Shown here in pieces: positions 33,644 to 56,950 of a stretch of DNA of 64,000 nt. The notes under the pieces were generated by a model. It was not told the origin of the DNA. It worked only from the letters and a program-made list of their open reading frames with translations, and ran no database searches. Source of the stretch: Firmicutes bacterium HGW-Firmicutes-2 (GTDB lineage Bacteria > Bacillota > Clostridia > Lachnospirales > Vallitaleaceae); the NCBI GenBank assembly GCA_002841495.1, contig PGZV01000015.1, positions 62,001 to 126,000 of the forward strand. Direction: 5' to 3'. Position numbers and translations under genes: made by a program. Each line of letters opens with the position of its first letter. The stretch's first letter is position 1.

Positions 33644-33925
33644 TTAATCTAAGCTTGGTAGTATTAGTTCTACTTCCTCATGAGGTCTTGGTATTACATG
33701 TACAGATACTAATTGACCCACTCTTTCTGCTGCTGCTGCACCGGCATCTGTTGCAGCTTTAACAGCGCCAACATCACCCCTAACCATGACAGCAACCAAT
33801 CCACCTCCCACTTTTTCTTTGCCTACCAATGTCACGTTTGCCGCTTTCACCATCGCATCTGCCGCTTCAATAGCACCAACCAGTCCTTTTGTCTCAATCA
33901 TACCCAATGCATAACTCGCCATCAT
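33644..33925 (-). CDS. eutM: BMC-H shell protein, second EutM paralog
   Basis: The 93-residue single-BMC-domain protein ([20 protein letters not shown] and [19 protein letters not shown]) assembles as hexamers with a central pore in the shell facets. About 85-90 percent of aligned residues match the eutM at 39502, so they are recent paralogs. Differences cluster near KEKVGGG versus KVLVGGG and at the C-terminus. AGGAG precedes the ATG. It lies between the EutQ-N-like gene and eutH. Confidence 0.95.
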
Positions 33926-33953
33926 TCTACACTCCTTTTAGTCATATTGATTT

Positions 33954-36191: not shown

Positions 36192-36455
36192 TTAGACATC
36201 TACTGCATCAATGATACCCACTACGATTGCATCTACAGGTATATCTTTTCTGCCTAGTGCCATCCTAGCTGAGCTACCGTTAACCACCAACACCGTTTCA
36301 CCAATCCCTGCTCCGATGCTATCTGCTGCAACAAATGTAGGCAAGTCTTTGTCCGAAGCATAATCCAAAGGCTTTATCACCAGTAGTTTCAACCCGTTTA
36401 AATTTTCATCTTTTCTTGTTGCCCATACATTTCCGATTACATTACCTACAATCAT
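36192..36455 (-). CDS. eutN: EutN pentameric shell vertex protein
   Basis: The 87-residue EutN/CcmL-family protein (IVGNVIGNVWATRKDENL, LLVIKPLDYA, VAADSIGAGIGETVLVVNGS) forms pentamers that cap the polyhedral vertices. This is the only BMC-P in the locus. An ATG start with GGAGG 8 bases upstream is present. Confidence 0.95.
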   Translation of the reverse strand: MIVGNVIGNVWATRKDENLNGLKLLVIKPLDYASDKDLPTFVAADSIGAGIGETVLVVNGSSARMALGRKDIPVDAIVVGIIDAVDV

Positions 36456-36478: not shown

Positions 36479-37192
36479 TTAAGTGGTGATTATACTTATT
36501 TTCTTGTCTCTTAGATAATCCCGTGCCAAAGGTGTCACTATGGTTTGTTTCTTAACTAAAAGATGCTTACAGCCTTTTATATGATACTGCTTTGCTATGG
36601 ATTCTGTTATGATCTTTACCTGTACAACATGTTCTTCTGTTATTTGGGCTTCTTTAAAGAGTTCTTTAGAGATTTCTGAACGCTTCATCTTTTCAACAAT
36701 TTCATTTGTATAAATCCATTCTATTCCAAAGGTTTTCAGCTGTTCTTCATAGCCTTTTAGCATGTTGTAAAAATTGGTGTTTGAGGTATGTTCATATCTT
36801 AGATAGGTTATCCCTTCTTTAAGAATATAGATTTTTTTACCCGCCAGAATGGCCTCTATGACCAAAGAAGAAACTGGATTGTTTGCAAGTCCCATAGATA
36901 TATGGACAAGTTCCTGGTGACTGATGCTGCCAAGTAGTATAGCATCATAAACGTTTATATTTATATGTTCTTCATATTCATAATGATCCTCATAAAAGTC
37001 GATCCTATAACGATGATGAATCTCACTTAATATCTTATGATCTGATATAGCGATTGCCAGAATCCTTTCTTTCCTCATGGCGTTTTCTAAGTCATTGATA
37101 GTATGCTTTTCTTCCAACCTTTTTATGACTTCTTTTATAATGTTTTCAATCAACTTTTTTTGGTCCATGGATTCTATATTCAATATGCTCAC
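36479..37192 (-). CDS. Ethanolamine-utilisation protein (flavoprotein-like; uncharacterised eut family)
   Basis: The 237-residue protein belongs to an uncharacterised family found only in BMC operons. It opens with an amphipathic segment (KKLIENIIKEVIKRLEE) typical of an encapsulation peptide. Residues about 60-160 resemble a Rossmann/flavoprotein-like fold (AILLGSISHQELVHISMG, AILAGKKIYIL). The end (HLLVKKQTIVTPLARDYL) matches the EutQ N-terminal module shared with EutT and the 33954 gene. The start, a GTG at 37192, has no ideal ribosome site. Cargo enzyme or cofactor partner is possible. The reaction is unknown. Confidence 0.65.
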   Translation of the reverse strand: MSILNIESMDQKKLIENIIKEVIKRLEEKHTINDLENAMRKERILAIAISDHKILSEIHHRYRIDFYEDHYEYEEHININVYDAILLGSISHQELVHISMGLANNPVSSLVIEAILAGKKIYILKEGITYLRYEHTSNTNFYNMLKGYEEQLKTFGIEWIYTNEIVEKMKRSEISKELFKEAQITEEHVVQVKIITESIAKQYHIKGCKHLLVKKQTIVTPLARDYLRDKKISIITT

Positions 37193-41323: not shown

Positions 41324-41983
41324 CTATTCCACCCCCTTGTAAAACTTCAAGATGGCTTCAATGAGTTCATCTTTTCTGGAATACTTGATTTGACTTCTTT
41401 CAATAGAGAATGCACCTTCAAATTGATGATCAATTTTTCTGGCAAGGGCTCTTAGATCAACTGTTTTTAGAGCCTTTAATGCTTCACTACTTTTAGGTGA
41501 TAGGTCCAATTCTAAGACGAGATTATCTTTTGCCATTTTTACTTTTGGGGCATCGACTTCTTCTTGTACCTTTTCTTGTACCTTTTCTTGTACCTTTTCT
41601 TGTACCTTTTCTTGTACCTTTTCTTGTTCTTTTTCTTGCTGATCCTTTACCGCTTCTTGATATTTGGCTTCAAGAGGCTGTTGACTGTCTTGCTGTTGAA
41701 CTTCTTGAATCAGCGTTGGTAATATTTTTTCTACATCATCACTGGGTCTTGGAATTACATGGGTGGATAACAGGTGACCTATTTTTTGCACGGCTGCTGC
41801 CGCCGCATCTATGGATGCCTTTACAGCGCCAACATCACCTCTAATATGTATGGTAACCAATCCGCCCTTTACAAACTCACAGCCTAATAAGGTTACATTG
41901 GCTGCCTTCAAACATACATCAGCAGCTTCAATTGCACCTACATATCCATATGTTTCTATCATTCCCAGGGCTATATTTTTCAT
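41324..41983 (-). CDS. BMC-H shell protein with repeat linker and C-terminal helical domain (EutK-like role)
   Basis: Residues 1-90 are a BMC domain ([56 protein letters not shown]). A charged linker follows with five tandem QEKV units, then a C-terminal domain (KYSRKDELIEAILKFYKG) resembling a small SAP/Rho-N-like or EutK helix-turn-helix. EutK of Enterobacteria has a C-terminal winged-helix, so this may do the same job, possibly nucleic-acid or cargo binding. Start ATG at 41983. A GTG at 41995 is in frame but poorer. Confidence 0.8.
   Translation of the reverse strand: MKNIALGMIETYGYVGAIEAADVCLKAANVTLLGCEFVKGGLVTIHIRGDVGAVKASIDAAAAAVQKIGHLLSTHVIPRPSDDVEKILPTLIQEVQQQDSQQPLEAKYQEAVKDQQEKEQEKVQEKVQEKVQEKVQEKVQEEVDAPKVKMAKDNLVLELDLSPKSSEALKALKTVDLRALARKIDHQFEGAFSIERSQIKYSRKDELIEAILKFYKGVE
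41561..41632 (-). repeat. 12-bp tandem repeat coding the QEKV linker
   Basis: Five exact and one imperfect 12-bp units (TTCTTGTACCTT on the plus strand) lie in tandem inside the BMC-H gene. The unit is a multiple of three, so slippage would change linker length without a frameshift. Confidence 0.9.
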
Positions 41984-42004
41984 ATTTTTCACCACATTTT
42001 CTTA

Positions 42005-42678: not shown

Positions 42679-43566
42679 TTACAATTGTAATTCCAGACCA
42701 CTTTTCTTTTGATCCAGCATTTCTTTTAATATGTGCGCAATATGAGCACCTGCTTCTACTGCTGCAGTTCCGCCTTGATGGATATTAGAAACCACCGTTC
42801 TTCTTGCCTCGGGCATACCTACGGTTCCTTTATAAGCTATATAGGCACTCATACTTTCCCCTGTAGCCAGTCCCGGTCTCTCGCCTACGAGTAGACATGT
42901 AATGTCAGCGCCTGTCACTTCAGATACAACATCCATAGATGGAACGCGACCATATTTGATAAAGAACGGTGTTCCGGCTTTGATGCCATAACCTTCAAGA
43001 CCTTGGAATATAACCGGTAGTATGTCCCTGATATTGGCTTCTACTGCTGTTGAACTTAACCCATCTGCTACAATGACTTGAACCTGTGGGTTCATTTTAC
43101 ATTTTTCTTTCATGATCGCAACTTCTTCATCGTCAAATTTTCTACCTAGGTCCGGTCTGGTTAAATACTCATCTTTGTCCTTACATTTGGTTTTTACTGT
43201 GAAAAGATTCATTTCTGCAATAATCTCTTCGGATACATCTGTAAAAACAGCGTCCATAGCGACAGCGTGATCCGCTCTAAATCTAAGTAAAGTTTCGGTC
43301 TTATACCTTGGGCCTGCTCGCCACACACCAACCCTAGCAGAGGTTTTTGCTTTCATTTGCAAATAGTCTTCTCTGTTTTCAGGATTCGGAACCAACAATT
43401 GTTTTCTCATATCCACCATGGTAATATCTGACAATTCATTGTCATCTATATGGTCGACGTCGCTTTGACTTTTTCCGGTGTCTTTCTTTGATTCTGCAAA
43501 ATCCTTGTTATTCATCTCTGATAAAACTTGCTCTACAATTACTTTTAATTCTTTCTCAGATATCAT
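42679..43566 (-). CDS. eutC: Ethanolamine ammonia-lyase small subunit
   Basis: The 295-residue protein has an amphipathic N-terminal helix ([17 protein letters not shown], the usual EutC encapsulation peptide) and a linker. The EutC body has [53 protein letters not shown] and [17 protein letters not shown]. With EutB it forms the adenosylcobalamin-dependent lyase, and EutC lines the cofactor site. Only one EutC accompanies two EutB genes. AGGTGAGGTG precedes the ATG. Confidence 0.95.
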
Positions 43567-43576
43567 TTAATTCACC

Positions 43577-44947
43577 TCACCTTTTTAAGAATATTGATGG
43601 ATCTCCACCTTTTGCTGTTAACTTGCCACTTTCATCCATGATGCCCATATCCATAAGCCATTTGAAAAACTCTTTGGTCGGTTTCCTATTTAGCAACTCA
43701 CGTAAGGTTGCATCATCGTGAAAACTGGTGTCCTGGTAGCTTAGCATAATGTCGTCTCCCACCGGTACGCCCATATAATAATTGGAACCGGCCATAGCAA
43801 GTAACATGGTCGCTATTTCTTGGTCATTTTGATCCATTTTAGTATGGTTGGTATAACATGGCGCCATGCCCATAGGTAAGCCCATGAGTTTTCCCATAAA
43901 ATGATCTTCAAGATTTGCCCGAATCATTTGTCTACCATCATATAATGTTTCAGGACCAATGAAGCCGGATACATTGTTGACCATAAACGGATTGTATCTT
44001 TTTGCAAATCCATAACTTCTCGCTTCAAGTGTCATCTCGTCTACACCATGATCCGTATCCAGTGACATCTCTGAACCTTGTCCGGTTTCAAAATACATTA
44101 GATTCGGTCCCGGTGCTATGCCTTGCTTCTTAATCAGTTCGAATGCTTCATCAATTAACATGGCATCAATTCCAAAAGCCTTATTTGCATCCTCAGTTCC
44201 GGCGACACTTTGAAAAAAGATCGATACGGGCGCCCCTTGTCTGACGGCTTCCATCTGAGTGGATATATGAGACAGCACACAGGTTTGGGTTGGCACCTCC
44301 CACTTCATCATAAAATCATAGATACAGTTCATGATGTTTTTGGTATTACCTACTGTATCTTCAACCGGATTGACACCAATAACCGCATCTCCTGAACCAT
44401 AAGACAAGCCTTCCATTATAGTTGCAATAATCCCATCAGGATCATCCGTTGGATGATTGGGTTGGAGCCTAAATGAAAGGGTTCCCGGCAATCCGACAGT
44501 GGTATTGGCTTTGCCCCATATGTTGATTTTACTGGCCCCATAGACCAAATCCATATTCGACATAAGCTTTGCAGCACCGGCTACCATTTCGGCTGTAAGG
44601 CCTCTTCCGATGCGTTTGATGTCCTCATTGGTCGTAGAATGCAAAAGTACATATTCTCTTAAATAACCAACTGTCCAGTTTTTGATTTCATTATAAATGC
44701 TTTCATTCACCAGACCATCAATGACCCTCGTCACTTCATCTTCTTCCATGGGGATCACCGGATTGTTCCTTAAGTCTTCTAGTGTTAGTTCACTTAGAAC
44801 TCTTTTTGCAGCCACCCTTTCTTGGTTTGTTTCAGCGGCAATCTTTAAGTATATATCTCCGGATTTTTCTTCATTGGCCTTTGCCAACACTTCTTTTACA
44901 GACGTAAACGCATACGAAACACCAAACAGTTTCGTCTTAAGCTTCAT
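43577..44947 (-). CDS. eutB: Ethanolamine ammonia-lyase large subunit, copy next to eutC
   Basis: The 456-residue TIM-barrel EutB keeps residues that in E. coli bind substrate: Arg and Gln of FRLQPNHPTDD (R160/Q162), Asn of GVNPVEDT (N193), Glu of YFETGQGSEM (E287) and Asp of KMDQND (D362). Substrate is cleaved to acetaldehyde and ammonia by radical chemistry. It is 17 bases downstream of the other eutB and 10 bases before eutC, so the products share one message. AAGGGGG precedes the ATG. The pairing with eutC suggests this is the main catalytic copy, but that is inference. Confidence 0.95.
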   Translation of the reverse strand: MKLKTKLFGVSYAFTSVKEVLAKANEEKSGDIYLKIAAETNQERVAAKRVLSELTLEDLRNNPVIPMEEDEVTRVIDGLVNESIYNEIKNWTVGYLREYVLLHSTTNEDIKRIGRGLTAEMVAGAAKLMSNMDLVYGASKINIWGKANTTVGLPGTLSFRLQPNHPTDDPDGIIATIMEGLSYGSGDAVIGVNPVEDTVGNTKNIMNCIYDFMMKWEVPTQTCVLSHISTQMEAVRQGAPVSIFFQSVAGTEDANKAFGIDAMLIDEAFELIKKQGIAPGPNLMYFETGQGSEMSLDTDHGVDEMTLEARSYGFAKRYNPFMVNNVSGFIGPETLYDGRQMIRANLEDHFMGKLMGLPMGMAPCYTNHTKMDQNDQEIATMLLAMAGSNYYMGVPVGDDIMLSYQDTSFHDDATLRELLNRKPTKEFFKWLMDMGIMDESGKLTAKGGDPSIFLKR

Positions 44948-44964
44948 AAAGATTCCCCCTTGTT

Positions 44965-46329
44965 CTACTTAAGAAAAATGGACGCGTCGCCTGCTCGATC
45001 CGTAAACTTACCGTTCTTCCTTATGCCCATCTTTTCTAACCATAAATCAAATTCCTTAATTGGTTTCAGATTCAATAACTCCCGTAAAGTTTGCGCTTCA
45101 TGATACCCTGTACACTGATAATTCAACATAACGTCATCGCCTACGGGAATCCCCATAAAGTAGTTGCATCCAGCTGTTGTAAGGAGCACAGCTAGATTCT
45201 CTATGTCATTTTGATCCGCTTTCATATGGTTGGTATAACATGCATCTACACCCATTGGTATGCCTGATAACTTGCCCATGAAGTGGTCTTCAAGACCTGC
45301 TCTTATAACCTGATGGTTATCATATAAGAATTCCGGTCCGATAAAGCCGACAACCGTATTGACCAAAAATGGTTGATACCTTTTTGCATACCCATAACAT
45401 CTTGCTTCTAAAGTTAGTTGGTCTGCACCATGATGGGCATCGGAGGACAATTCTGACCCTTGACCTGTTTCAAAATACATCACGTTTGGTCCAGTTGACG
45501 TACCTTCCTTCAGTACCAATGCACGTGCTTCATCTAGCATATCTGTCGTAACACCAAAAGCCTCATTTCCTTTTTGAGAACCAGCTATACTTTGAAAAAT
45601 AAGGTCAGAGGGTGCACCTTCCCTGATGGCTTTCATCTGAGTTGTAACATGGCCAAGCACACAAGCTTGGGTTGGGATCTCCCATTTGTTTTTAAGATCC
45701 GCAAAGATTTTCAATACATTACTAACACTGTTTACAGAGTCATCGACAGGGTTAAGACCGATAACGGCATCCCCAACACCATAAGAAAGACCTTCCATTG
45801 TGGAAATCATGATGCCATCCAGATCATCTGTGGGATGGTTTGGTTGCAACCTAATAGATAAAGTGCCTGGTAGTCCGATCGTCGTATTGCAGTGGGCTGT
45901 TATTCTAATCTTGCTCGCACCATAGATTAGGTCGAGATTAGACATGATTTTGGTAACCGCTGCAACCATTTCACTGGTCAAACCTCTGCTTACCCTTACC
46001 AGATCACTTTCTTTTGTGTTTGAATCCAGAATCCATTCTCTTAATTCACTCACGGTCCAGTTTTGAATCTCTCCATAGATTTTTTCATTGACCGCATCTT
46101 GAATGACCCTAGTGACTTCATCGATTTCATAGGGAATCACCGGGTTGTTTCTCAAATCCTTCAACATTAGATTGCTAAGAACCTCTTTGGCAGCTACACG
46201 TTCTGTAACGGTGTTAGCGGCTATACCGGCCAGCTTGTCTCCGGATTTTTCTTCATTTGCTTTTGCTAAGACTTCTTTGACTGAATTGAATTGATACACG
46301 ACTCCAAATAACTTGGTTTTTAACCTCAT
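44965..46329 (-). CDS. eutB: Ethanolamine ammonia-lyase large subunit, second copy
   Basis: This 454-residue protein is colinear with the other EutB, with roughly 60 percent matching residues by eye. It retains the catalytic pattern (IRLQPNHPTDD, GLNPVDDS, YFETGQGSEL, KADQND), so it may be active. Differences occur in several loops and in the C-terminus (MGIRKNGKFTDRAGDASIFL). It could form mixed (EutB1/EutB2)6-EutC6 complexes or serve a different amino alcohol. The ATG at 46329 has AGAGG 8 bases upstream. A GTG at 46338 is the alternative. Confidence 0.92.
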   Translation of the reverse strand: MRLKTKLFGVVYQFNSVKEVLAKANEEKSGDKLAGIAANTVTERVAAKEVLSNLMLKDLRNNPVIPYEIDEVTRVIQDAVNEKIYGEIQNWTVSELREWILDSNTKESDLVRVSRGLTSEMVAAVTKIMSNLDLIYGASKIRITAHCNTTIGLPGTLSIRLQPNHPTDDLDGIMISTMEGLSYGVGDAVIGLNPVDDSVNSVSNVLKIFADLKNKWEIPTQACVLGHVTTQMKAIREGAPSDLIFQSIAGSQKGNEAFGVTTDMLDEARALVLKEGTSTGPNVMYFETGQGSELSSDAHHGADQLTLEARCYGYAKRYQPFLVNTVVGFIGPEFLYDNHQVIRAGLEDHFMGKLSGIPMGVDACYTNHMKADQNDIENLAVLLTTAGCNYFMGIPVGDDVMLNYQCTGYHEAQTLRELLNLKPIKEFDLWLEKMGIRKNGKFTDRAGDASIFLK

Positions 46330-46399: not shown

Positions 46400-47836
46400 C
46401 TAATATCCAAATGCTAATGTTTTGATTACAATTGGTACAACCCTCCCATTTGCCAAAGGTTTTCCTATATCGATAAAATCCCCATTACTTACATTAACAG
46501 CATCGATACAAACAACGTCCTTCTTATACTCTAAATAGGTTTGAATGGTTTGTCCTAGTGCTTTTGCAATGTCATGTTCTACAATGATTACCAGCGGAAC
46601 ATCCATACTTATAATCTCCGCCATTCCACCAACAATTGTTTGTGCAAGTAACTTTAGCTCACCAAAGCTTATACTCTTCACCCCCTTAATGGCCAAAGCC
46701 ACTTGTTGTTTCTCATGGTGCAAGCCAAACCAACTCACTTTTTCTTTGATTGCCTGACGCAGTTCTTCGTAACCCAGTTGTTCATCTTCTACCGTAAGTT
46801 TAAGAATCGGTATGTTTTTAAGTGGAAAAATATCTTTTGAGAACGTGATCGTACTGCCGCTTATATCTGTTGTGTGACTGCCTGCTCCTACTACTGTTGC
46901 TCTGATGGTTTCCGTCGGTTTATGTATGCCAAAATGATTGGATAAATCTAATTTTTGAATGCTCTTGCCTAGAAAGACACCGATGTCACCATAGATTAAT
47001 TTTTCATTGTCAGTGTATATCCCAAAGATGCAATCAGCAACACCGCCTGAAAAAGAGATGTATTTGATCTCATAGTTTCTTTTTAAGTCTTTCGTCGTTA
47101 GCATAAGTTCCAGATCTTCTGTTACTTTTCTAATCCCTAAAACCTCTTCTAGGAGCTCCGCCATCCGGTTCGTAATCCTCTCAACCTGATCTACTGTGAT
47201 CACCTGCCCAACTTCTATCTGGATACCCATGTTTTCGGCTAGCTTCTTTATCTTTTTTGATATGTAAGCCACTTTCATACTGTCCGGATGAATCTTAATA
47301 AGCCGTCCTCCCAGATCTAAGCAAGTGGTATCAATAACCTCTCCTTCTTTGAAAACAGAGATGTTGGTTGTGCCACCTCCAATGTCTAGATTCACCACAA
47401 CGCTTCTATTGGATTTAGAAAAAACATCTGCACCTGCACCTTTTCCGGCAATAATGGCCTCAAGATCCGGTCCTGCTGTGGCTACAACAAAGTCACCTGC
47501 TAAGCCACTTAGTTTTTCCAGTACCAGAGATGCATTCACTTTCCTAGCCGTTTCACCTGTGATAATGACCGCCCCTGTGTCCACATCTCCTGGATGGATA
47601 CCCGCTTTTTCATATTCATTTTCTATGATTTTCCTAATAGCTTCGCCATCGATCTCAGTATCTGATAGTAAAGGCGTAAAATAGATGTTGCTCTTGTAAA
47701 TGACTTCTTTTTCTACTATGCTGATTTTGGGTATGGAAAAAGCCGATGCCGTATTTTCTATGGTCAGTCTACTAAACACCAATTGGGTTGTTGATGTGCC
47801 AATATCAATGCCTACGCTGATAATTTTCTCTTCCAA
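46400..47836 (-). CDS. eutA: EutA reactivase for ethanolamine ammonia-lyase
   Basis: The 478-residue EutA protein has an ASKHA fold: VGIDIGTSTTQLVFS near the N-terminus, VVNLDIGGGTTNISVF in the middle, and YISFSGGVADCIF and VVGAGSHTTDISG later. It exchanges damaged cobalamin for fresh adenosylcobalamin in an ATP-dependent manner. The TTG at 47836 has GGGAGGGG 5 bases upstream. An earlier TTG at 47851 is only within that ribosome site. It follows the hairpin pair and terminator at 47864-47933, so its expression is probably under EutV control. Confidence 0.93.
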   Translation of the reverse strand: MEEKIISVGIDIGTSTTQLVFSRLTIENTASAFSIPKISIVEKEVIYKSNIYFTPLLSDTEIDGEAIRKIIENEYEKAGIHPGDVDTGAVIITGETARKVNASLVLEKLSGLAGDFVVATAGPDLEAIIAGKGAGADVFSKSNRSVVVNLDIGGGTTNISVFKEGEVIDTTCLDLGGRLIKIHPDSMKVAYISKKIKKLAENMGIQIEVGQVITVDQVERITNRMAELLEEVLGIRKVTEDLELMLTTKDLKRNYEIKYISFSGGVADCIFGIYTDNEKLIYGDIGVFLGKSIQKLDLSNHFGIHKPTETIRATVVGAGSHTTDISGSTITFSKDIFPLKNIPILKLTVEDEQLGYEELRQAIKEKVSWFGLHHEKQQVALAIKGVKSISFGELKLLAQTIVGGMAEIISMDVPLVIIVEHDIAKALGQTIQTYLEYKKDVVCIDAVNVSNGDFIDIGKPLANGRVVPIVIKTLAFGY

Positions 47837-47863
47837 AATAACCCCTCCCAAAACGCAAAAATC

Positions 47864-49359: not shown

Positions 49360-49935
49360 CTATTCTACATGATTCATAATAATTGCATTTGCAATGTTCT
49401 TCATAGAAGCGTGTTTTTCCATACTCAGCTTTCTAATGAGATTATAGGCCTCATTATCTGATATTTTATCTTTATCCATAAGGATGCCTTTTGCACGATC
49501 TATAGATTTTCTGGCTTCTAGCTGATCTTTAAGCTTTTCAGTGTCCTCTTTTATTTTTTTAATGAGCTTTCCTTTTGCTACTGCAATCTCAATGGTCGGG
49601 ATAAGGTTCTGGCTGCTTACAGGTTTGACGATATACCCCATAACACCCACCTCTTTGGCTTGCTCTAAAAACTCAATGCCACTATAGGCTGTTAACAACA
49701 CAACGCTAAGTGCAAGCTCTTCATTGATAATTACTCTTGATGCTTTAATGCCATCGAGTATGGGCATCTTTACATCCATAAGTACCAAATCCGGTCTAAG
49801 TTTTCTACACAATTCAACTGCATCGAATCCATCAGAAGCTTGTCCTACTACATCGTAGCCTTCTTCTTTAAGAATCTCGCTGAGGTCCATCCTAGTAATA
49901 AGTTCATCGTCGGTTACTACTATTCTGCACTTCAT
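49360..49935 (-). CDS. eutV: EutV response regulator with ANTAR RNA-binding domain
   Basis: The receiver (VVTDDELITRMDLSEIL, LVLMDVKMPILDGIKA with phospho-Asp, GYIVKPVSSQNL) joins a short coiled coil and an ANTAR domain (RKSIDRAKGILMDKDKISDN and NLIRKLSMEKHASMKN). It is an antiterminator: the phosphorylated dimer binds twin hairpins and keeps transcription going. The ATG at 49935 has AAGGAGG 8 bases upstream. The frame stays open for 50 more codons through the palindromic repeat, but that extension is not coding in my view. Confidence 0.93.
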   Translation of the reverse strand: MKCRIVVTDDELITRMDLSEILKEEGYDVVGQASDGFDAVELCRKLRPDLVLMDVKMPILDGIKASRVIINEELALSVVLLTAYSGIEFLEQAKEVGVMGYIVKPVSSQNLIPTIEIAVAKGKLIKKIKEDTEKLKDQLEARKSIDRAKGILMDKDKISDNEAYNLIRKLSMEKHASMKNIANAIIMNHVE

Positions 49936-49966
49936 TCTATTGTCCTCCTTAAATATATTGAAACGG

Positions 49967-50172
49967 TTGGTTAAGGCTTCAAAACCATATAGTTGAACTT
50001 TCACAGACAGGATAGTTATGAATGCATCAACATAATCTATTTCTGTTTGTGAATTTAGTGAAACTTGGTTTTGGCCTATAACCAACGGTTGGTTAAAGTG
50101 TCAAATCTATATCGTTGAACGTTCACATACCCTATATGTGAACGTATAGAAACTTGGTTTAACCTTTAACCA
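49967..50172. repeat. Two tandem long palindromic units in the eutP-eutV gap
   Basis: Unit B (50090-50172, 83 bp) is bounded by TGGTTAAAG and CTTTAACCA and contains the 11-bp hairpin ACGTTCACATA/TATGTGAACGT. Unit A (49967-50085, 119 bp) has TTGGTTA-type ends with GGC/GCC extensions and an inner TTCACAAACAG/CTGTCTGTGAA pair. TTAACCAACCGTT is repeated directly at the same end of each unit. The units look like related imperfect copies. No known family is recognised. They lie between the eutP stop and the eutV ribosome site. Confidence 0.75.
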
Positions 50173-51168: not shown

Positions 51169-52002
51169 TTATTTTAAGTTTGTAAGTTCAACTGCTTTTG
51201 CGTCAGCAAACAATTGATTCTCACCGGACATCGCCCATATAAAAGAGTAGTTTGTTGTACCAACACCACTATGTATCGACCAATAGGGTGAAACAACCGC
51301 TTCTTCATTTCTAACGACAATATGCCTTGTTTGATCTTCGCATCCCATAAAATGAAATACAAGATCTGTTTGTAGAATATTGAAGTATAAGTAGACTTCA
51401 CTTCTTCTTTCATGGATATGAGGTGGCATGCTGTTCCATACACTACCTTCTAGCATGGTTGTAAATCCCATAACTAAATGGCAGCTCTTTACACCGTTTG
51501 GATGTATGTATTTATAAAGAACTCTTTCATTTGCTGCCTTTTTGTTTCCAAGCTCTAATTTTTCTGCATCTCTTTCAAATATCATTGTCGTTGGGTATTC
51601 AATATTAGCCACGGTACTGATATAATAAAACTTTGCCAGATTATTAGGATCATGGCTTGAAAACTCAATCGATTCCTGCCCTTTCCCAATATACAGGCCA
51701 TCCATTAGGTCTAAACGATAGGATATACCATCGACTCTAATCTGACCGGAACCTCCAATATTAATAATACCCATCTCCCTGTTTTCTAAAAAGAAAGCTT
51801 GACTAGAAGGTGTTAGTTCATTAATATCTAAAGGTTTTTCAGGGGTAACACCCCCAATAATCATACGGTCTGCATGCGAGTATACGGATTTTATTTTATT
51901 TGTCTCAAATAATTTCTGAACAAGAAATGCTTCTCTTAATTGATCCGTATCAAAACCCTTAACTTCATTATAATGTGATATGTGTTTTTCTTGCATATCC
52001 AA
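51169..52002 (-). CDS. kduI: KduI, 5-keto-4-deoxyuronate isomerase
   Basis: The 277-residue protein has family length and the cupin metal site MPPHIHERRSEVYLYF (H-x-H, E) plus HSGVGTTNYSFIWAM near the C-terminus. It opens with RHYNEV-type SHYNEVKGFDTDQLREAFL. It isomerises 5-keto-4-deoxyuronate to 2,5-diketo-3-deoxygluconate, which KduD then reduces. It is the last gene of the uronate set, 40 bases after kduD, and 165 bases before eutS. Confidence 0.93.
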   Translation of the reverse strand: MDMQEKHISHYNEVKGFDTDQLREAFLVQKLFETNKIKSVYSHADRMIIGGVTPEKPLDINELTPSSQAFFLENREMGIINIGGSGQIRVDGISYRLDLMDGLYIGKGQESIEFSSHDPNNLAKFYYISTVANIEYPTTMIFERDAEKLELGNKKAANERVLYKYIHPNGVKSCHLVMGFTTMLEGSVWNSMPPHIHERRSEVYLYFNILQTDLVFHFMGCEDQTRHIVVRNEEAVVSPYWSIHSGVGTTNYSFIWAMSGENQLFADAKAVELTNLK

Positions 52003-52042
52003 TCTCCTTGTTTCTCAAAATCTAAACTAGGGTTGATAGACT

Positions 52043-52783
52043 CTATCTAAAGTCTTGGCCACCATTTATTTGAATAACTTCACCTACAAGATAGCTGGAA
52101 TCTTCTGATGCCAAGAAATACATTGCATTAGCAACATCTTCAGGCGTACCAAATCTTTTTGCAGGAATGCCTTGCTTCCAACCTTCCATAAGCTCTTTAT
52201 TGGTAGCACTATGAAACTCAGTGTCAACAACCCCAGGTGAAACCGCGTTGACTCTAATGTTATAGCCGATAAACTCTTTTGCAGTCGCTCTAGTAAAAGC
52301 AAGAATCGCTGCTTTTGCTGCAGCATATGCCGCAATACCAGGTCCTCCGCCATTGTAAGCCGCAATGGAGGTAATATTGAGAATACTACCACCCTCTTTT
52401 TTCATATAGGGAATCACCGCTCTTGTACAAAAGAATGGATTATTCAAGTTAAGATCCAACACCGTATTCCAAAAATCCGTGCTCATTTCTTCAACCGGAC
52501 ATCTACCGCATAAGCCACCTGCGTTGTTAATGAGTACATCAATCTTACCATATTGATCGGCCACAGCTTTCATCATCGTGTTTACTTCTTCTTCTTTTGT
52601 TACATCCGCATAGAAAAAAGTTGCCTCATACCCTTCACTTTTAAGAATTTCTATTGCATCTTTTCCCGCTTCTGAATCGATTCCGTTTAAAGCAATTGTA
52701 TAGCCTTCTTTTGCAAATCTCTTTGCAGTTGTTAGACCAATGCCTCTTGTGCCACCAGTTATTAGAATGACTTTATTTTCCAT
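52043..52783 (-). CDS. kduD: SDR-family dehydrogenase, KduD by context
   Basis: The 246-residue short-chain dehydrogenase has TGGTRGIGLTTAKRFA (NAD-binding), NNAGGLCGRC, catalytic Ser/Tyr/Lys in NITSIAAYNGG and YAAAKAAILAFTRA, and PGVVDTEF. It is also similar to FabG, so the sequence alone does not fix the substrate. It is next to KduI and a KDG kinase, so 2-dehydro-3-deoxygluconate dehydrogenase (KduD) is the natural reading. Confidence 0.8.
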   Translation of the reverse strand: MENKVILITGGTRGIGLTTAKRFAKEGYTIALNGIDSEAGKDAIEILKSEGYEATFFYADVTKEEEVNTMMKAVADQYGKIDVLINNAGGLCGRCPVEEMSTDFWNTVLDLNLNNPFFCTRAVIPYMKKEGGSILNITSIAAYNGGGPGIAAYAAAKAAILAFTRATAKEFIGYNIRVNAVSPGVVDTEFHSATNKELMEGWKQGIPAKRFGTPEDVANAMYFLASEDSSYLVGEVIQINGGQDFR

Positions 52784-52816
52784 TGTAATCTCCTTTTTAT
52801 ATCTACTATTAATAGG

Positions 52817-53830
52817 TTAGTTTTGAACCAATTCCTTGCTATGGGTTGATCTTAGTTTCTCTACCAACATCAATGCACCTGTTGATGCCGCACAATCCGT
52901 AATATCATCCGTAAGTACTGTAATGTCAGCGTCATCTATGCCTCTTGAGTTTAATACTATTTTGAACGTCTCTTTTAGAGGCGAAGCGCCACCAATATAT
53001 ATATGATGGTATTTGCTTTTAATATCTGCAATAATATTGGGGTTGATATCATTAGAAATCAATGCACCGGCTAAGAAATTCGCACGTTCATTGGATGTTG
53101 TTTCCAATTGGATATCCATAAGTCTAACTGCAAAAGCCGATTTGGTGACGCCATTTTCCAATTCAAAGGCTATACCTTGTTTAATAGATGTTTCATCAAT
53201 TTCTGTAATAAGGCTTGGTAATATGGAACTTGATAGAATCGTTGCATTTACAAGCGCATGTAAAAACTCTCCAAGCATCGTCGTTGAACATCTTTCAATT
53301 TCGTTAAACTCATTGATCCATACAAATTTTGTATGGGATCCGGGCAAAATCAAAAGTGCAGGTCCCTTGATATTACAAAGTTCAATAATTCCGAAAGACT
53401 CTACTTCTTCGCCTCTCATAACATCTATGTGATCTAGACTTTCCATTGAAGGTACTTCTACATCGTTTTTCACACCCGGAATAAAGTAAAAGGGTTTATT
53501 ATCGCACCAGGAGAATGATTTCTTTTCAATGCCGTTCACTAAATCATTCATGGATACAGGACAAATTCTATGTGGTAATTCCATAAGCCCTAAGTTGCAT
53601 GTTATCATGCCCGATGCAGCGAAATATTCTACATCTTCAATCCTTCGATTGGCCTTCTTGAGCCCCTCATGAATAATTTCGGCAAGTCCTTTTTCAAGAA
53701 TTTCCTGACTGCCTGTAATCGCTACGTCTTTAATGCCGACACGCGCGCTGGATATTGAAAGGATTTGTCGACCTTCAATAACCTTAATACGACTATTGGT
53801 TGTACCCACATCAACTGTTATGGCTATCAC
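52817..53830 (-). CDS. dgoK: 2-dehydro-3-deoxy sugar acid kinase (DgoK type)
   Basis: The 337-residue protein opens with ITVDVGTTNSRIKVI, the DgoK phosphate-binding motif, and continues with LILPGSHTKFVWINEFNEIE and TMLGEFLHAL, family-specific blocks. It phosphorylates 2-dehydro-3-deoxy-galactonate or -gluconate, giving the 6-phosphate for the aldolase. The GTG start overlaps the tctA stop by 4 bases. The PfkB-type KdgK is absent here. The named substrate is not settled because DgoK and KDG kinases overlap. Confidence 0.85.
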   Translation of the reverse strand: MIAITVDVGTTNSRIKVIEGRQILSISSARVGIKDVAITGSQEILEKGLAEIIHEGLKKANRRIEDVEYFAASGMITCNLGLMELPHRICPVSMNDLVNGIEKKSFSWCDNKPFYFIPGVKNDVEVPSMESLDHIDVMRGEEVESFGIIELCNIKGPALLILPGSHTKFVWINEFNEIERCSTTMLGEFLHALVNATILSSSILPSLITEIDETSIKQGIAFELENGVTKSAFAVRLMDIQLETTSNERANFLAGALISNDINPNIIADIKSKYHHIYIGGASPLKETFKIVLNSRGIDDADITVLTDDITDCAASTGALMLVEKLRSTHSKELVQN

Positions 53831-55326
53831 TTTTGTCCCTCCCTTTGCTGTCTTATGTTTGTAATGGTCTTTTTAATAATTGGCATAAAGAATGTAATCA
53901 CGGCAATGCTTAATAAAACAGCACTTATTGGTCTTGTAAATAGAACACTGATTTCTCCGTCTGACATCATCAATGATTTTCTAAGCTCGCGTTCAGCCAT
54001 GGGGCCAAGAATTAATGCAAGTACAATCGGAGAAGCCGGAAACTCTAATTTCTGCATAACATAACCAATTATGCCACTTACAAACATGACGATGACATCA
54101 AAAAAGTTGTTGTTAATTGCATAAGAGCCTACAATACAAAGTACAAAAATTACAGGTGTAAGTATATATGCCGGTATCGTTATGATTTTTGTAAACCATT
54201 TAATACCTACAAATCCAAGAATAAGCATGAAGAAATTCGCGATTAAAAACCCGACAAAGATGGTATAAACCAAAGGTGCATGATCTCTAAATAAAAGTGG
54301 TCCCGGCTGTAGGCCTTGCATGATAAGAGCACCCAGCATTATGGCCGTGGTCGCATCTCCCGGTATCCCAAGTGTTAGCAAAGGTACCATTGCACCACCT
54401 GTTACACCATTATTTGCTGCTTCTGGTGCTGCTATAGCTTCCGGTATGCCTGTACCGAATTTTTCCGGGTGTTTTGAAAATCTTTTGGCTTCGTTATAGG
54501 CTACAAAAGCGCCAATATCGCCACCCGCACCCGGTATGATTCCTATAAAAGTTCCTATAAGACCGGAACGGAGCGCTGTTGGTATAACTTTTTTCATATC
54601 CTCCCATGTCGGAAGAATGCGATGAAGTGATTGCTTAATGCTGACTTTCTTCATCATATCCTCAAGACTGATAAAGGACTGTGACAATGCAAATAAACCA
54701 ATCATGACCGGAATAAAAGAAAAACCATTAAACAAATTCATGTTCCCAAAAGTAAATCTCTGATATCCTGTAACAATATCTATTCCGACTGTTGAGACTA
54801 AAAGTCCGATTACCCCTGCCATTATACCTTTTAGTACATGTTTGCCTGAAACACTAGAAATAATACTGAGTCCAAACATTGCCAGTGCAAAATATTCAGG
54901 CGCACTAAATTTCAGTCCAATCTTAGCAAGTTGTGGTGATATCAATATGAGCAGAATTACACTCAGTGTGCCACCTATATAAGAAGAAACCGCTGATATA
55001 CCAAGTGCTCTTCCGGCTTCACCTCTTTTAGACATTTCAAATCCGTCAATAGCGGTTGCAGCTGCTGCCGGTGTGCCTGGTGTTTTAAGAAGTATTGCTG
55101 ATATTGACCCTCCGTAGATTGCACCTGCATAAATGCCAAGTAGTAACAATATCCCACTTTCGGCATCCATTCCAAATGTTAGAGGCAAGAGTAAGGCTAC
55201 ACCCATAGTCGCTGTTAAGCCAGGAAGAGCACCTATAGCAATACCGGCTGCTACACCACATGCTATCATAAATAATATCTCAAAGTTCATTACTGCTGCC
55301 AAACCATGTCCAAGTAATTCTAGCAT
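53827..55326 (-). CDS. tctA: TctA-type large permease of a tripartite tricarboxylate transporter
   Basis: The 499-residue protein has about 12 helices and family motifs GALPGLTATMGVALLLPLTF, YGGSISAILLKTPGTPAAAA and GIIPGAGGDIGAFVAYNEA. It is the large membrane subunit working with TctB and the binding protein TctC. In this locus the substrate should be a sugar acid or uronate rather than citrate (inference from neighbours). It lies 11 bases after tctB. Confidence 0.95.
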   Translation of the reverse strand: MLELLGHGLAAVMNFEILFMIACGVAAGIAIGALPGLTATMGVALLLPLTFGMDAESGILLLLGIYAGAIYGGSISAILLKTPGTPAAAATAIDGFEMSKRGEAGRALGISAVSSYIGGTLSVILLILISPQLAKIGLKFSAPEYFALAMFGLSIISSVSGKHVLKGIMAGVIGLLVSTVGIDIVTGYQRFTFGNMNLFNGFSFIPVMIGLFALSQSFISLEDMMKKVSIKQSLHRILPTWEDMKKVIPTALRSGLIGTFIGIIPGAGGDIGAFVAYNEAKRFSKHPEKFGTGIPEAIAAPEAANNGVTGGAMVPLLTLGIPGDATTAIMLGALIMQGLQPGPLLFRDHAPLVYTIFVGFLIANFFMLILGFVGIKWFTKIITIPAYILTPVIFVLCIVGSYAINNNFFDVIVMFVSGIIGYVMQKLEFPASPIVLALILGPMAERELRKSLMMSDGEISVLFTRPISAVLLSIAVITFFMPIIKKTITNIRQQREGQK

Positions 55327-55337
55327 ATTATTTTCTC

Positions 55338-55787
55338 CTAACCTATTATACCTGTCGGAAGCGGAACCGCTAACAACAGCTTAAACACACTATAAATAAT
55401 TCCCGTTATGACAATCGATACTAAAACCAGTTTGGGATAATGTTTCATACCATAAAAACGAACTAATCCAAATAAAAACAGTGGTGTTGCAAAAATAAAA
55501 CCAATAATATTAAGTGCTACCATGTAAGCCAATATACTCACCATCGTAATGTATGCTTTGATTGCATATATATCAAATAAACCTGTTTTACTCTCATCTT
55601 TACTGATAAAAGTTGATATAAAAAGTATTAGACTTAGCCCTATGATTGTTAATGCTAAGATTCTTGGAAAAAAATCAGGACCGGTGATTGTACCGCCTTC
55701 ATAACTTGGAAAACTGCTGATTTCAAAAAGAACAAAAATACCAATTAAGATAAGTATGATGGAAATAATCATATTTCCCTTTTTCAC
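55338..55787 (-). CDS. tctB: TctB-type small permease
   Basis: The 149-residue protein has four helices (residues 5-25, 45-62, 80-100, 118-145) as in TctB. GPDFFPRILALTIIGLSL near residue 40 is the typical conserved loop. The start is a GTG at 55787 with GGAGG 7 bases upstream. It is separated from tctC by 197 bases holding a large stem-loop. Confidence 0.9.
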   Translation of the reverse strand: MKKGNMIISIILILIGIFVLFEISSFPSYEGGTITGPDFFPRILALTIIGLSLILFISTFISKDESKTGLFDIYAIKAYITMVSILAYMVALNIIGFIFATPLFLFGLVRFYGMKHYPKLVLVSIVITGIIYSVFKLLLAVPLPTGIIG

Positions 55788-55870
55788 AATTGCACCTCCG
55801 CGAAGTATTCTAAAACATTCATAACCATATCCTCTACATATTTGTATAGGATGAAAGTATCAACCTATTT

Positions 55871-55952
55871 GCTAAGTTTCTGTCTACAATACATCGTTCC
55901 AATTGCATAAAATGGACTCACTATATTGTAGACAGATTACGTGAAACTTAGC
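55871..55952 (-). other. Large stem-loop between tctC and tctB
   Basis: GCTAAGTTTC pairs with GAAACTTAGC over 10 bp, and inside it TGTCTACAATA pairs with TATTGTAGACA over 11 bp. No T-run follows. Such intercistronic structures often guard the upstream mRNA end, keeping the binding protein above its membrane partners. The site between tctC and tctB fits this. Confidence 0.65.
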
Positions 55953-55984
55953 TTTATGTTATTCAGATATTTAGTCCTAAAGTA

Positions 55985-56950
55985 TTACTTGATATCTGCT
56001 ACAAGATCTTTGAAAAATTTATTTTCAGAGTTCATTTTTTCTCTGTATTGTGCTTCATCAAGGATGGCTATGGTTAATCCACTATTTGCCATAAATGAAG
56101 TAAATGACTCTTCCTTAACAGCTTGACCAAATGCTTCTTTAAGTACATTCATAACATCATCCGGTGTATCTTTTGGTACTGCTAAACCTCTCCATGTACC
56201 TATTGCTACATCATAACCTGATTCCTTAAGAGTCGGTACATCCGGAAATGAGTTTAATCTTTCGTTATCCGCTACACCAAGTATCTTAAGTTGACCTGCC
56301 TCAACTTGTGAAGCAACCTCAGCAGGACTAACCGTTACCGCTTCAATATGTCCGCCTAAAATCGCTGCAACTGCCGGCGCTGCGCCTTCATATGGAATAT
56401 GGTTAAACTTTACATCCGCTGCTTTTTCTATGGCTACTGCTGCCAAATGCCATATCGCACCTACCCCTGAATTACCAATCTGAACTTTACCCGGATTTTC
56501 TTTTGCATATGCAAGAAATTCTTCTACTGTATCCCAAGGTGCATCTGCTGCTACAGTAATCGCTGCAGGCTCTGCATTGATTTGCATAATTGGTCTAAAA
56601 TCATCACTTGTAAAAGGTGCAAGATCTTGTGGTGGTAACGTTGTAAGTTCTACACAAATAGTTGTAACTGTGTAACCATCCGGTTTTGCGTTAGCACCTT
56701 CACCCATACCAACCGCACCACCGGCACCTGTTTTATTTACAACCACTAATGGTTGCTCAAGACTGTTCTTTGCCGCATCTGCAACTGCTCTTGTTACAAT
56801 ATCCGTTCCGCCACCTGCTGAAAAAGGAACGATCATAGTTATTGGTCCGTTTGGAAATTTTGCTTCTTCTTTTGCACAACCTGCTAACATAATCGTTACC
56901 ATTGCTACAATTAGTACTACCGACCCTAATCTCTTTGTTAATCTTTTCAT
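55985..56950 (-). CDS. tctC: TctC-type solute-binding lipoprotein
   Basis: A signal peptide ends in a lipobox (TIMLAGCAKE, with lipid-anchored Cys). The mature Bug/TctC domain has TMIVPFSAGGGTDIVTRAVA, VVVNKTGAGGAVGMGEGANA and KVQIGNSGVGAIWHLAAVA. It binds the substrate and docks to TctA/TctB. The Gly-rich AGGGTDIV loop is the family signature. Its substrate is likely the uronate used by the downstream enzymes. Confidence 0.95.
   Translation of the reverse strand: MKRLTKRLGSVVLIVAMVTIMLAGCAKEEAKFPNGPITMIVPFSAGGGTDIVTRAVADAAKNSLEQPLVVVNKTGAGGAVGMGEGANAKPDGYTVTTICVELTTLPPQDLAPFTSDDFRPIMQINAEPAAITVAADAPWDTVEEFLAYAKENPGKVQIGNSGVGAIWHLAAVAIEKAADVKFNHIPYEGAAPAVAAILGGHIEAVTVSPAEVASQVEAGQLKILGVADNERLNSFPDVPTLKESGYDVAIGTWRGLAVPKDTPDDVMNVLKEAFGQAVKEESFTSFMANSGLTIAILDEAQYREKMNSENKFFKDLVADIK

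What the first reader, a model, noticed from the sequence alone, without database searches (positions are those of the whole stretch)
43577..46329. Two complete EutB large subunits share one EutC
Two tandem eutB genes (about 455 residues each, 17 bases apart) both keep the substrate-contact residues, but only one eutC follows. Enterobacterial and the best-known Firmicute eut operons have one eutB. Either the duplicate broadens the substrate range or mixed (EutB1/EutB2)6-EutC6 assemblies form. The conserved active-site blocks argue against decay.
Basis: partly seen in the sequence, partly recalled or inferred. Interest (0 to 1): 0.65.

Follow-up and report, generated by a model that had tools for sequence, protein, structure and literature searches.

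The report
Ethanolamine lyase pair sharing one subunit
An ethanolamine-degrading operon carries two different large enzyme subunits but only one small partner, and the second large subunit belongs to a sister branch with a rebuilt amine pocket, perhaps for methylated relatives of ethanolamine such as choline.

Summary
The tandem eutB pair with a single eutC is real. Four of four genus genomes searched carry both copies; Geosporobacter has the same gene order; both copies are under strong purifying selection. The upstream copy (EutB1) is canonical. The downstream copy (EutB2) has lost Asp362, recalled as a ligand of the substrate's amino group, and carries Asn325, Ser327, Pro363 and Asp406; the recalled hydroxyl-binding and catalytic residues are kept. 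Elsewhere that branch usually has its own EutC. Its loci are enriched for trimethylamine-methyltransferase-family genes (8 of 30 loci against 0 of 99). In the window EutB2 sits between a canonical eutB and a canonical-lineage EutC, so one EutC probably serves two enzymes. Best reading: EutB1 makes acetaldehyde from ethanolamine, and EutB2, with the same EutC, from an N-methylated ethanolamine (choline or dimethylaminoethanol). The altered pocket is shown; sharing of EutC is well supported by gene content; the substrate is inferred.

The parts
44965..46329 (-). eutB1: canonical ethanolamine ammonia-lyase large subunit (D362 type)
   Evidence: PF06751 731.8 bits; all 10 checked pocket residues kept; tree among D362 EutBs
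43577..44947 (-). eutB2: EutB of the A362/D406 subfamily, amine subsite changed (T325N, V327S, D362A, A363P, C406D against EutB1)
   Evidence: PF06751 671.2 bits; AlphaFold2 model mean pLDDT 91.6
42679..43566 (-). eutC: the only small subunit in the genome, of the EutB1-partner lineage
   Evidence: PF05985 286.8 bits; one copy in genome; tree
46400..47851 (-). eutA, reactivating factor
   Evidence: PF06277 661 bits
47934..49343 (-). eutW-like sensor histidine kinase
   Evidence: PdtaS-GAF, HisKA_2, HATPase_c
49360..50085 (-). eutV-like response regulator with ANTAR domain
   Evidence: PF00072, PF03861
50177..50644 (-). eutP
   Evidence: PF10662
50604..50963 (-). eutS-like BMC shell protein
   Evidence: PF00936
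42005..42658 (-). eutL-like BMC shell protein
   Evidence: PF00936, two stretches
41324..41995 (-). BMC shell protein with long charged tail
   Evidence: PF00936
39851..41320 (-). aldehyde dehydrogenase (eutE/pduP-like)
   Evidence: PF00171
39502..39786 (-). eutM-like BMC shell protein
   Evidence: PF00936
38686..39495 (-). cobalamin adenosyltransferase (eutT-like)
   Evidence: PF01923
38023..38673 (-). PduL-type phosphotransacylase
   Evidence: PF06130
37202..38020 (-). eutJ-like actin-fold protein
   Evidence: HSP70/PilM-type hits; name by recall
36479..37192 (-). operon protein of unknown family
   Evidence: no Pfam match; present in the genus genomes and G013
36192..36455 (-). eutN vertex shell protein
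   Evidence: PF03319
34820..36160 (-). PduS-like flavo/FeS protein
   Evidence: PF01512, PF13534, PF13375
34275..34823 (-). PduT-like double-BMC shell protein
   Evidence: PF00936 twice
33647..33937 (-). BMC shell protein
   Evidence: PF00936
32479..33597 (-). eutH, ethanolamine permease family
   Evidence: PF04346 518 bits
32026..32475 (-). eutQ-like cupin
   Evidence: PF06249

Best explanation
The operon makes two B12-dependent lyases that share one small subunit and one microcompartment. EutB1+EutC is ordinary ethanolamine ammonia-lyase. EutB2 keeps the residues recalled as serving radical generation and the substrate hydroxyl (R160, Q162, N193, F258, E287, F329, L402) but has a rebuilt amine subsite: Asp362 is lost, a new Asp406 is gained, and T325N, V327S and A363P lie beside it. 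It docks on the same EutC, whose E. coli counterpart is reported to carry an encapsulation peptide, and most likely splits an N-methylated ethanolamine (choline, dimethylaminoethanol or monomethylaminoethanol) into acetaldehyde and the corresponding methylamine. The acetaldehyde feeds the shared aldehyde dehydrogenase and PduL. Shown here: the changed residues, the separate subfamily, purifying selection, the single EutC and its lineage, and enrichment of MttB-family genes at subfamily loci. Inferred: that EutB2 is catalytic, that it uses this EutC, and what its substrate is.
For: Pocket: all 31 EutBs lacking D362 have D406, and all 109 with D362 (the E. coli chain included) have C, T or S at 406. 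The 31 form one side of a tree branch with SH-aLRT 100, and 96 after 29 discriminating columns were removed. Context: an MttB-family frame lies 1.0-8.2 kb from EutB2 in 8 of 30 loci with a EutB2, against 0 of 99 loci with D362 EutB only (Fisher p 4e-6; kinship not corrected, and some of the 30 loci were fetched with longer flanks than the 99). In L061, L150 and L153 that frame is broken by an in-frame TAG at VAGG*xDSK, and a TAG also precedes a separate MttB 3' piece in L146. L150 and L061 read through TAG exceed the TIGR02369 trimethylamine methyltransferase cut-off; the TAG-free homologues of L050 and L068 (the latter cut by the contig end) stay below it. Choline-kinase-like, EamA and corrinoid-protein genes are nearby, the same kinds of gene as in the E. 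limosum choline-demethylation cluster (PMC12155760, abstract and sections 5, 8, 10, 11 read), where Sporomusa malonica is named; locus L069 is that species. Sharing: one EutC per genome in G000-G003 and in Geosporobacter; it groups with EutCs of EutB1-only operons. At 34 positions where the window and Geosporobacter EutB2 agree with one type or the other, the EutB1-like ones lie mainly in residues 5-158 and the EutB2-like ones in the barrel, p 0.005 with a boundary I chose after seeing the list.
Against: No substrate was tested. The genus genomes and Geosporobacter have no MttB family member at all, so the choline link comes only from other members of the subfamily. One EutB1-only genome, G128, also has a TAG-containing MttB about 10 kb from a D362 EutB, with (by reading and BLAST) choline-kinase-like and EamA genes, and kinase- or EamA-like hits occur in the D362 loci L164 and L166, so such neighbours do not prove a changed substrate. 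One EutB2 genome (G401) has a true CutC about 36 kb away on the same contig, which could explain its TMA methyltransferase. Six of 13 EutB2 genomes of the phylum sample showed no TAG-containing MttB near EutB2 in the listed hits. Two EAL loci that both use ethanolamine are known in Klebsiella pneumoniae (PMC11101070, passages), so two EutBs need not mean two substrates. Pocket roles of single residues are recalled, not measured on coordinates, and the model is weakest exactly there: mean pLDDT 60 for residues 361-370 and 71 for 401-410.
Confidence: 0.45

Rival explanations
1. EutB2 is a lyase for another primary amino alcohol (2-aminopropanol, 1-amino-2-propanol, serinol or the like); the shifted aspartate makes room for a substituent on carbon rather than on nitrogen.
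For: Same pocket data. The swap of D362 for D406 keeps one carboxylate, which fits a primary ammonium group in a shifted place.
Against: Does not explain the MttB/choline-type genes at EutB2 loci.
Confidence: 0.2
2. EutB2 is an ethanolamine isozyme: Asp406 takes over the role of Asp362, and the pair differs in affinity, stability or cobamide preference, not in substrate.
For: The 362/406 swap is complete (31 of 31); the other recalled catalytic residues are kept; it lies in the same gene array as EutH and the same downstream enzymes. Precedent for two ethanolamine loci with different kinetics: Klebsiella pneumoniae (PMC11101070, passages).
Against: Genomes exist with EutB2 as the only EutB found (G105, G116, G242, G401), and the gene neighbours differ.
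Confidence: 0.2
3. EutB2 is a non-catalytic or modulating subunit of mixed EutB1/EutB2 hexamers.
For: One EutC for two EutBs; EutB and EutC are roughly equimolar in E. coli (PMC11334477, passages).
Against: E287, R160, N193 and the other invariant residues are kept; EutB2 occurs directly before a EutC in genomes with no EutB1 found.
Confidence: 0.08
4. Redundant duplicate on its way to loss.
For: Absent from the sister-genus genome G013, whose operon is otherwise the same over the stretch read.
Against: dN/dS 0.02-0.05 over synonymous distances of 0.3-0.8; present in 4 of 4 genus genomes searched and in Geosporobacter.
Confidence: 0.03

Closest known systems
Ethanolamine ammonia-lyase EutBC (E. 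coli 3ABO; Listeria 2QEZ heavy chain, organism recalled)
   Same: Fold family, length, radical/hydroxyl-site residues, EutA/EutT/EutL neighbours; EutB2 hits NCBIfam NF011649 above cut-off
   Different: EutB2 lacks Asp362 and has Asp406; two large subunits per small subunit; the two distinct solved EutB sequences found both have Asp362
Fused eutBC1/eutBC2 of Pelobacter carbinolicus (PMC3543383, passages)
   Same: Two EAL versions in one genome; [quoted passage not shown]
   Different: There each is a EutB-EutC fusion, so no EutC is shared; I could not check its residue 362
Long and short eut loci of Klebsiella pneumoniae (PMC11101070, passages)
   Same: Two EAL versions in one genome
   Different: Each locus has its own eutB and eutC, and both are reported to use ethanolamine
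CutC choline trimethylamine-lyase (glycyl radical)
   Same: Proposed net reaction would be the same if choline is the substrate
   Different: Unrelated protein and cofactor; no hit over the TIGR04394 cut-off in this genome
MthBCAK choline demethylation of Eubacterium limosum (PMC12155760)
   Same: Same kinds of genes neighbour other EutB2 loci; its product dimethylaminoethanol is a candidate EutB2 substrate
   Different: No MttB family member in the window's genome; homology of the neighbouring kinases to MthK was not tested
EUT2-type microcompartment loci (PMC4207490, PMC8217296, passages)
   Same: EutVW-like regulators, PduL-type phosphotransacylase, shell set
   Different: The passages I saw mention no second EutB type within one locus

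Membership tests
EutB (PF06751 / NF011649) | Profile score over curated cut-off, full length | tested here: met
   EutB1 731.8 and EutB2 671.2 bits against 25; EutB2 638.7 against 554 for NF011649
Canonical ethanolamine ammonia-lyase pocket | R160, Q162, N193, E287 and D362 contacting substrate (roles recalled) | tested here: not met
   EutB1 meets all; EutB2 has A362. So EutB2 is in the family by descent, but ethanolamine as its substrate is not established
Ethanolamine ammonia-lyase complex | A EutC partner, holoenzyme (EutB2EutC2)3 | not testable with these tools
   One EutC gene directly downstream; binding of EutB2 not testable
EUT2 microcompartment locus | EAL, EutA, two-component regulators, PduL-like PTAC, shell proteins | tested here: met
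   description from PMC4207490 (passages)
A362/D406 EutB subfamily (proposed here) | A or G at 362 with D at 406, one tree branch | tested here: met
CutC choline TMA-lyase | Glycyl radical enzyme over TIGR04394 cut-off | tested here: not met
   Best score in own genome 555 against 1050 bits

The most novel reading that the evidence does not exclude
The A362/D406 EutB branch is an unrecognised adenosylcobalamin-dependent lyase for choline or its demethylation products, a radical-B12 counterpart of CutC that profile searches label simply EutB. In this genus it has been grafted into a standard eut operon, where it shares EutC and the microcompartment with true ethanolamine ammonia-lyase.
Probability: 0.4. 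Interest if true: 0.85.

Novelty: new variant of a known kind. Interest (0 to 1): 0.62.

Why it matters
EutB2 scores as plain EutB in Pfam and NCBIfam, so genes of this branch are presumably annotated as ethanolamine ammonia-lyase. If the branch attacks choline or dimethylaminoethanol, anaerobic choline/TMA budgets that count only CutC and the MttB-family demethylases miss a route, and ethanolamine use may be over-predicted in the Firmicutes that carry it. The window's operon is also a natural test of whether one B12-enzyme small subunit can serve two catalytic subunits of different specificity.

Tried and rejected
Rejected: a recent tandem duplication (EutB1 and EutB2 fall on opposite sides of a branch with SH-aLRT 100). 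Rejected: pseudogene or relaxed selection. Rejected: a second EutC elsewhere in the genome. Considered and not settled: one or two insertions of eutB2. Geosporobacter and this genus have it; their nearest EutC relatives among the rows, G290 and G013, carry one EutB of the D362 type, so one gain with two losses and two gains both fit.

Led nowhere: open-access papers with residue-level pocket descriptions and fermentation of triethanolamine by acetogens. The eLife co-evolution paper mentions EAL but gives no EutB-EutC contact list in the passages seen, so I had no interface map. Two papers on choline use by 'Candidatus Formimonas' do not mention ethanolamine as a word of its own. A comparative-genomics paper (PMC6620236, passages) has a EutB tree in its supplement, which I could not see. 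Rfam found nothing at gathering thresholds in 30000-53000. Dimethylamine and monomethylamine methyltransferases occur in some EutB2 genomes; none of the hits lies within 20 kb of a EutB2 (the nearest on the same contig is about 40 kb away, in G166), so they did not help choose between choline and dimethylaminoethanol. A wider relatives search around G144 gave no new EutB-bearing genomes. A first Fisher count used 23 EutB1-only genomes; the right number is 21 and it was recomputed.

Full report
WHAT IS THERE. On the minus strand the window holds an ethanolamine-type microcompartment gene array running eutS-P-V-W-A-B1-B2-C-L-shell-aldehyde dehydrogenase-M-T-pduL-J-unknown-N-pduS-pduT-shell-H-Q (domains by Pfam; letter names partly by recall). 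EutB1 (44965-46329) and EutB2 (43577-44947) are complete, 17 bases apart, 64% identical. The genome has these two EutBs and one EutC.

CONSERVATION. The relatives search covered 59 genomes, the window's own included. All four of the genus (G000-G003) have two EutBs; of the other 55, none has more than one. In the window, G001 and G003 the order is eutA-B1-B2-C; in G002 the assembly breaks between B1 and B2, each at a contig end. Geosporobacter subterraneus, of another family, has the same order (L065). G144 has EutB1-EutA-EutB2(G362)-EutC in one locus, with 4 EutBs and 3 EutCs in the genome. The four genus genomes and Geosporobacter each have exactly one EutC. I counted EutBs over the whole genome for G000-G003 but not for Geosporobacter, where I saw two in the locus. 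Nei-Gojobori dN/dS within the genus, for the 4 of 6 pairs printed per gene, is 0.007-0.014 (EutB1), 0.02-0.05 (EutB2) and 0.03-0.05 (EutC).

THE POCKET. On 3ABO numbering EutB1 keeps all ten residues that I listed from memory as lining the substrate site. EutB2 has D362A. From recall of the published E. coli structures, not from a call: R160, N193 and E287 hold the hydroxyl, and Q162, E287 and D362 the amino group. On that recall the change is confined to the amine side. Among 140 EutBs that could be typed (141 rows, one fragment lacking the site), 109 have D362, always with T325 and V327 and never with D406. The other 31 have A or G at 362, always D406, N325 in 29 and S327 in 29. Further strong discriminators are 159, 296, 334, 345, 361, 363, 376, 379, 388 and 412. 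In the AlphaFold2 model of EutB2 (mean pLDDT 91.6, pTM 0.92) positions 159, 322, 325 and 361 lie in barrel strands and 327, 362 and 363 just after strand ends. Position 406 lies in the 395-408 stretch after the eighth strand. Confidence is lowest around these sites: block means 74 (321-330), 60 (361-370), 72 (391-400) and 71 (401-410). The model shows a barrel, not the pocket geometry.

A SEPARATE SUBFAMILY. The 31 sequences are one side of one branch: SH-aLRT 100, and 96 when 29 discriminating columns are left out. They come from Bacillota, Thermodesulfobacteriota (Desulfoluna) and Actinomycetota (a Propionibacteriaceae MAG). EutB2 is followed directly by EutC in 29 of 31 cases, and the other two sequences lie at contig ends; of 108 D362 EutBs, 95 are followed directly by EutC. 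The 13 that are not include the window genus, Geosporobacter and G144 copies (6 rows); I did not follow up the other seven. In the 398-genome phylum sample 13 genomes besides the window's own carry a EutB2, and 6 of them show no D362 EutB (G339, G105, G116, G210, G242, G401; G339 and G210 are under 90% complete), so it can stand alone.

THE SHARED EutC. The window genus EutCs group with that of G013, a sister-genus operon with EutB1 only (SH-aLRT 100); Geosporobacter's groups with that of G290, also with one D362 EutB (99). Eighteen EutCs next to EutB2 form a group of their own (75; 98 with one EutB1-partner row added). Five other EutB2-partner EutCs lie among EutB1-partner ones, two of them (L056, L067) on long, unsure branches. 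So in the window EutB2 lies between a canonical EutB and a canonical-lineage EutC. I then compared 11 EutB2s whose EutC is of the EutB1-partner kind with the other 20 (two of which have no EutC in view). At 47 positions separating EutB1 from those 20, the 11 are EutB1-like at 17, EutB2-like at 20 and other at 10 by consensus. For the window plus Geosporobacter, 17 positions are EutB1-like in both, 12 of them before residue 200, and 17 are EutB2-like in both, 14 of them after it; Fisher p 0.005, with the boundary chosen after seeing the list. I read this as an unchanged docking surface with a changed pocket; it may reflect ancestry alone, and I had no coordinates to place the positions. EutC is reported to carry the encapsulation peptide in E. 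coli (PMC11334477, passages), so sharing it would also bring both EutBs into one compartment.

SUBSTRATE. Of 130 loci with a typed or partial EutB, 30 carry a EutB2, 99 only D362 EutBs and one could not be typed. An MttB-family frame lies in 8 of the 30, 1.0-8.2 kb from EutB2, and in 0 of the 99 (p 4e-6). Kinship is not corrected (L050, L146 and L151 are one genus), flanks were unequal and contig ends cut some. In L061, L150 and L153 the frame is split by TAG at the place where pyrrolysine sits in TMA methyltransferase (place recalled); read through, L061 and L150 pass the TIGR02369 cut-off, and L153 was not scanned. The TAG-free homologues of L050 and L068 score 364 and 277 bits, below the 525 cut-off, so their substrate is open. 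By genome, 7 of the 13 EutB2 genomes (G401, G116, G339, G105, G144, G166, G170) have a TAG-containing MttB within 15 kb of EutB2, against 1 of 21 EutB1-only genomes (G128) (p 0.002). With the four genus genomes and Geosporobacter added it is 7 of 18 against 1 of 21, p 0.015. The hit list was cut, so these are lower bounds, and one genome with only a EutB fragment (G410) was left out. Choline-kinase-like, EamA and corrinoid-protein genes occur in several of these loci, as in the E. limosum choline cluster (PMC12155760). Against this, G128 shows such genes beside a D362 EutB, G401 also has a true CutC on the same contig, and the window's genus has no MttB at all. I therefore favour an N-methylated ethanolamine at moderate confidence and cannot choose between choline and dimethylaminoethanol.

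LITERATURE. In ten searches of the open-access library no listed title or abstract describes this EutB branch or two EutBs on one EutC. Several listings were cut at 20 of 21 to 207 papers, and subscription papers and supplements were not seen. Two EAL versions in one genome are known: the EutBC fusions of Pelobacter carbinolicus, one of which its authors thought might be a choline lyase (PMC3543383, passages), and the two loci of Klebsiella pneumoniae (PMC11101070, passages), each with its own EutC.

Noticed in passing
window 41324-41995: A BMC shell protein carries a long charged tail with repeated QEKV units (EKVQEKVQEKVQEK) after its shell domain.
   Followed up: no
window 51169-56950: Upstream of the eut array, same strand: by reading only, a KduI/KduD/sugar-kinase-like set followed by a TctABC-like tripartite transporter, suggesting uronate or sugar-acid use.
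   Followed up: no
window 36479-37192: Operon protein of 237 aa without any Pfam match; its homologues in the genus are less conserved (54-78%) than their neighbours.
   Followed up: no
L181 10548-14954 (G128): TAG-containing MttB, corrinoid protein, choline-kinase-like and EamA genes (by reading) about 10 kb from a canonical D362 EutB: an exception to the EutB2-choline link.
   Followed up: partly
L049 3619-8152 (G144): Third case of two EutBs for one EutC, with EutA between them; its second EutB has Gly362.
   Followed up: partly
L098 6998-8365 (Oscillospiraceae MAG): A EutB2-type EutB with Gly362 next to its own EutC, with few eut genes recognised around it.
   Followed up: no
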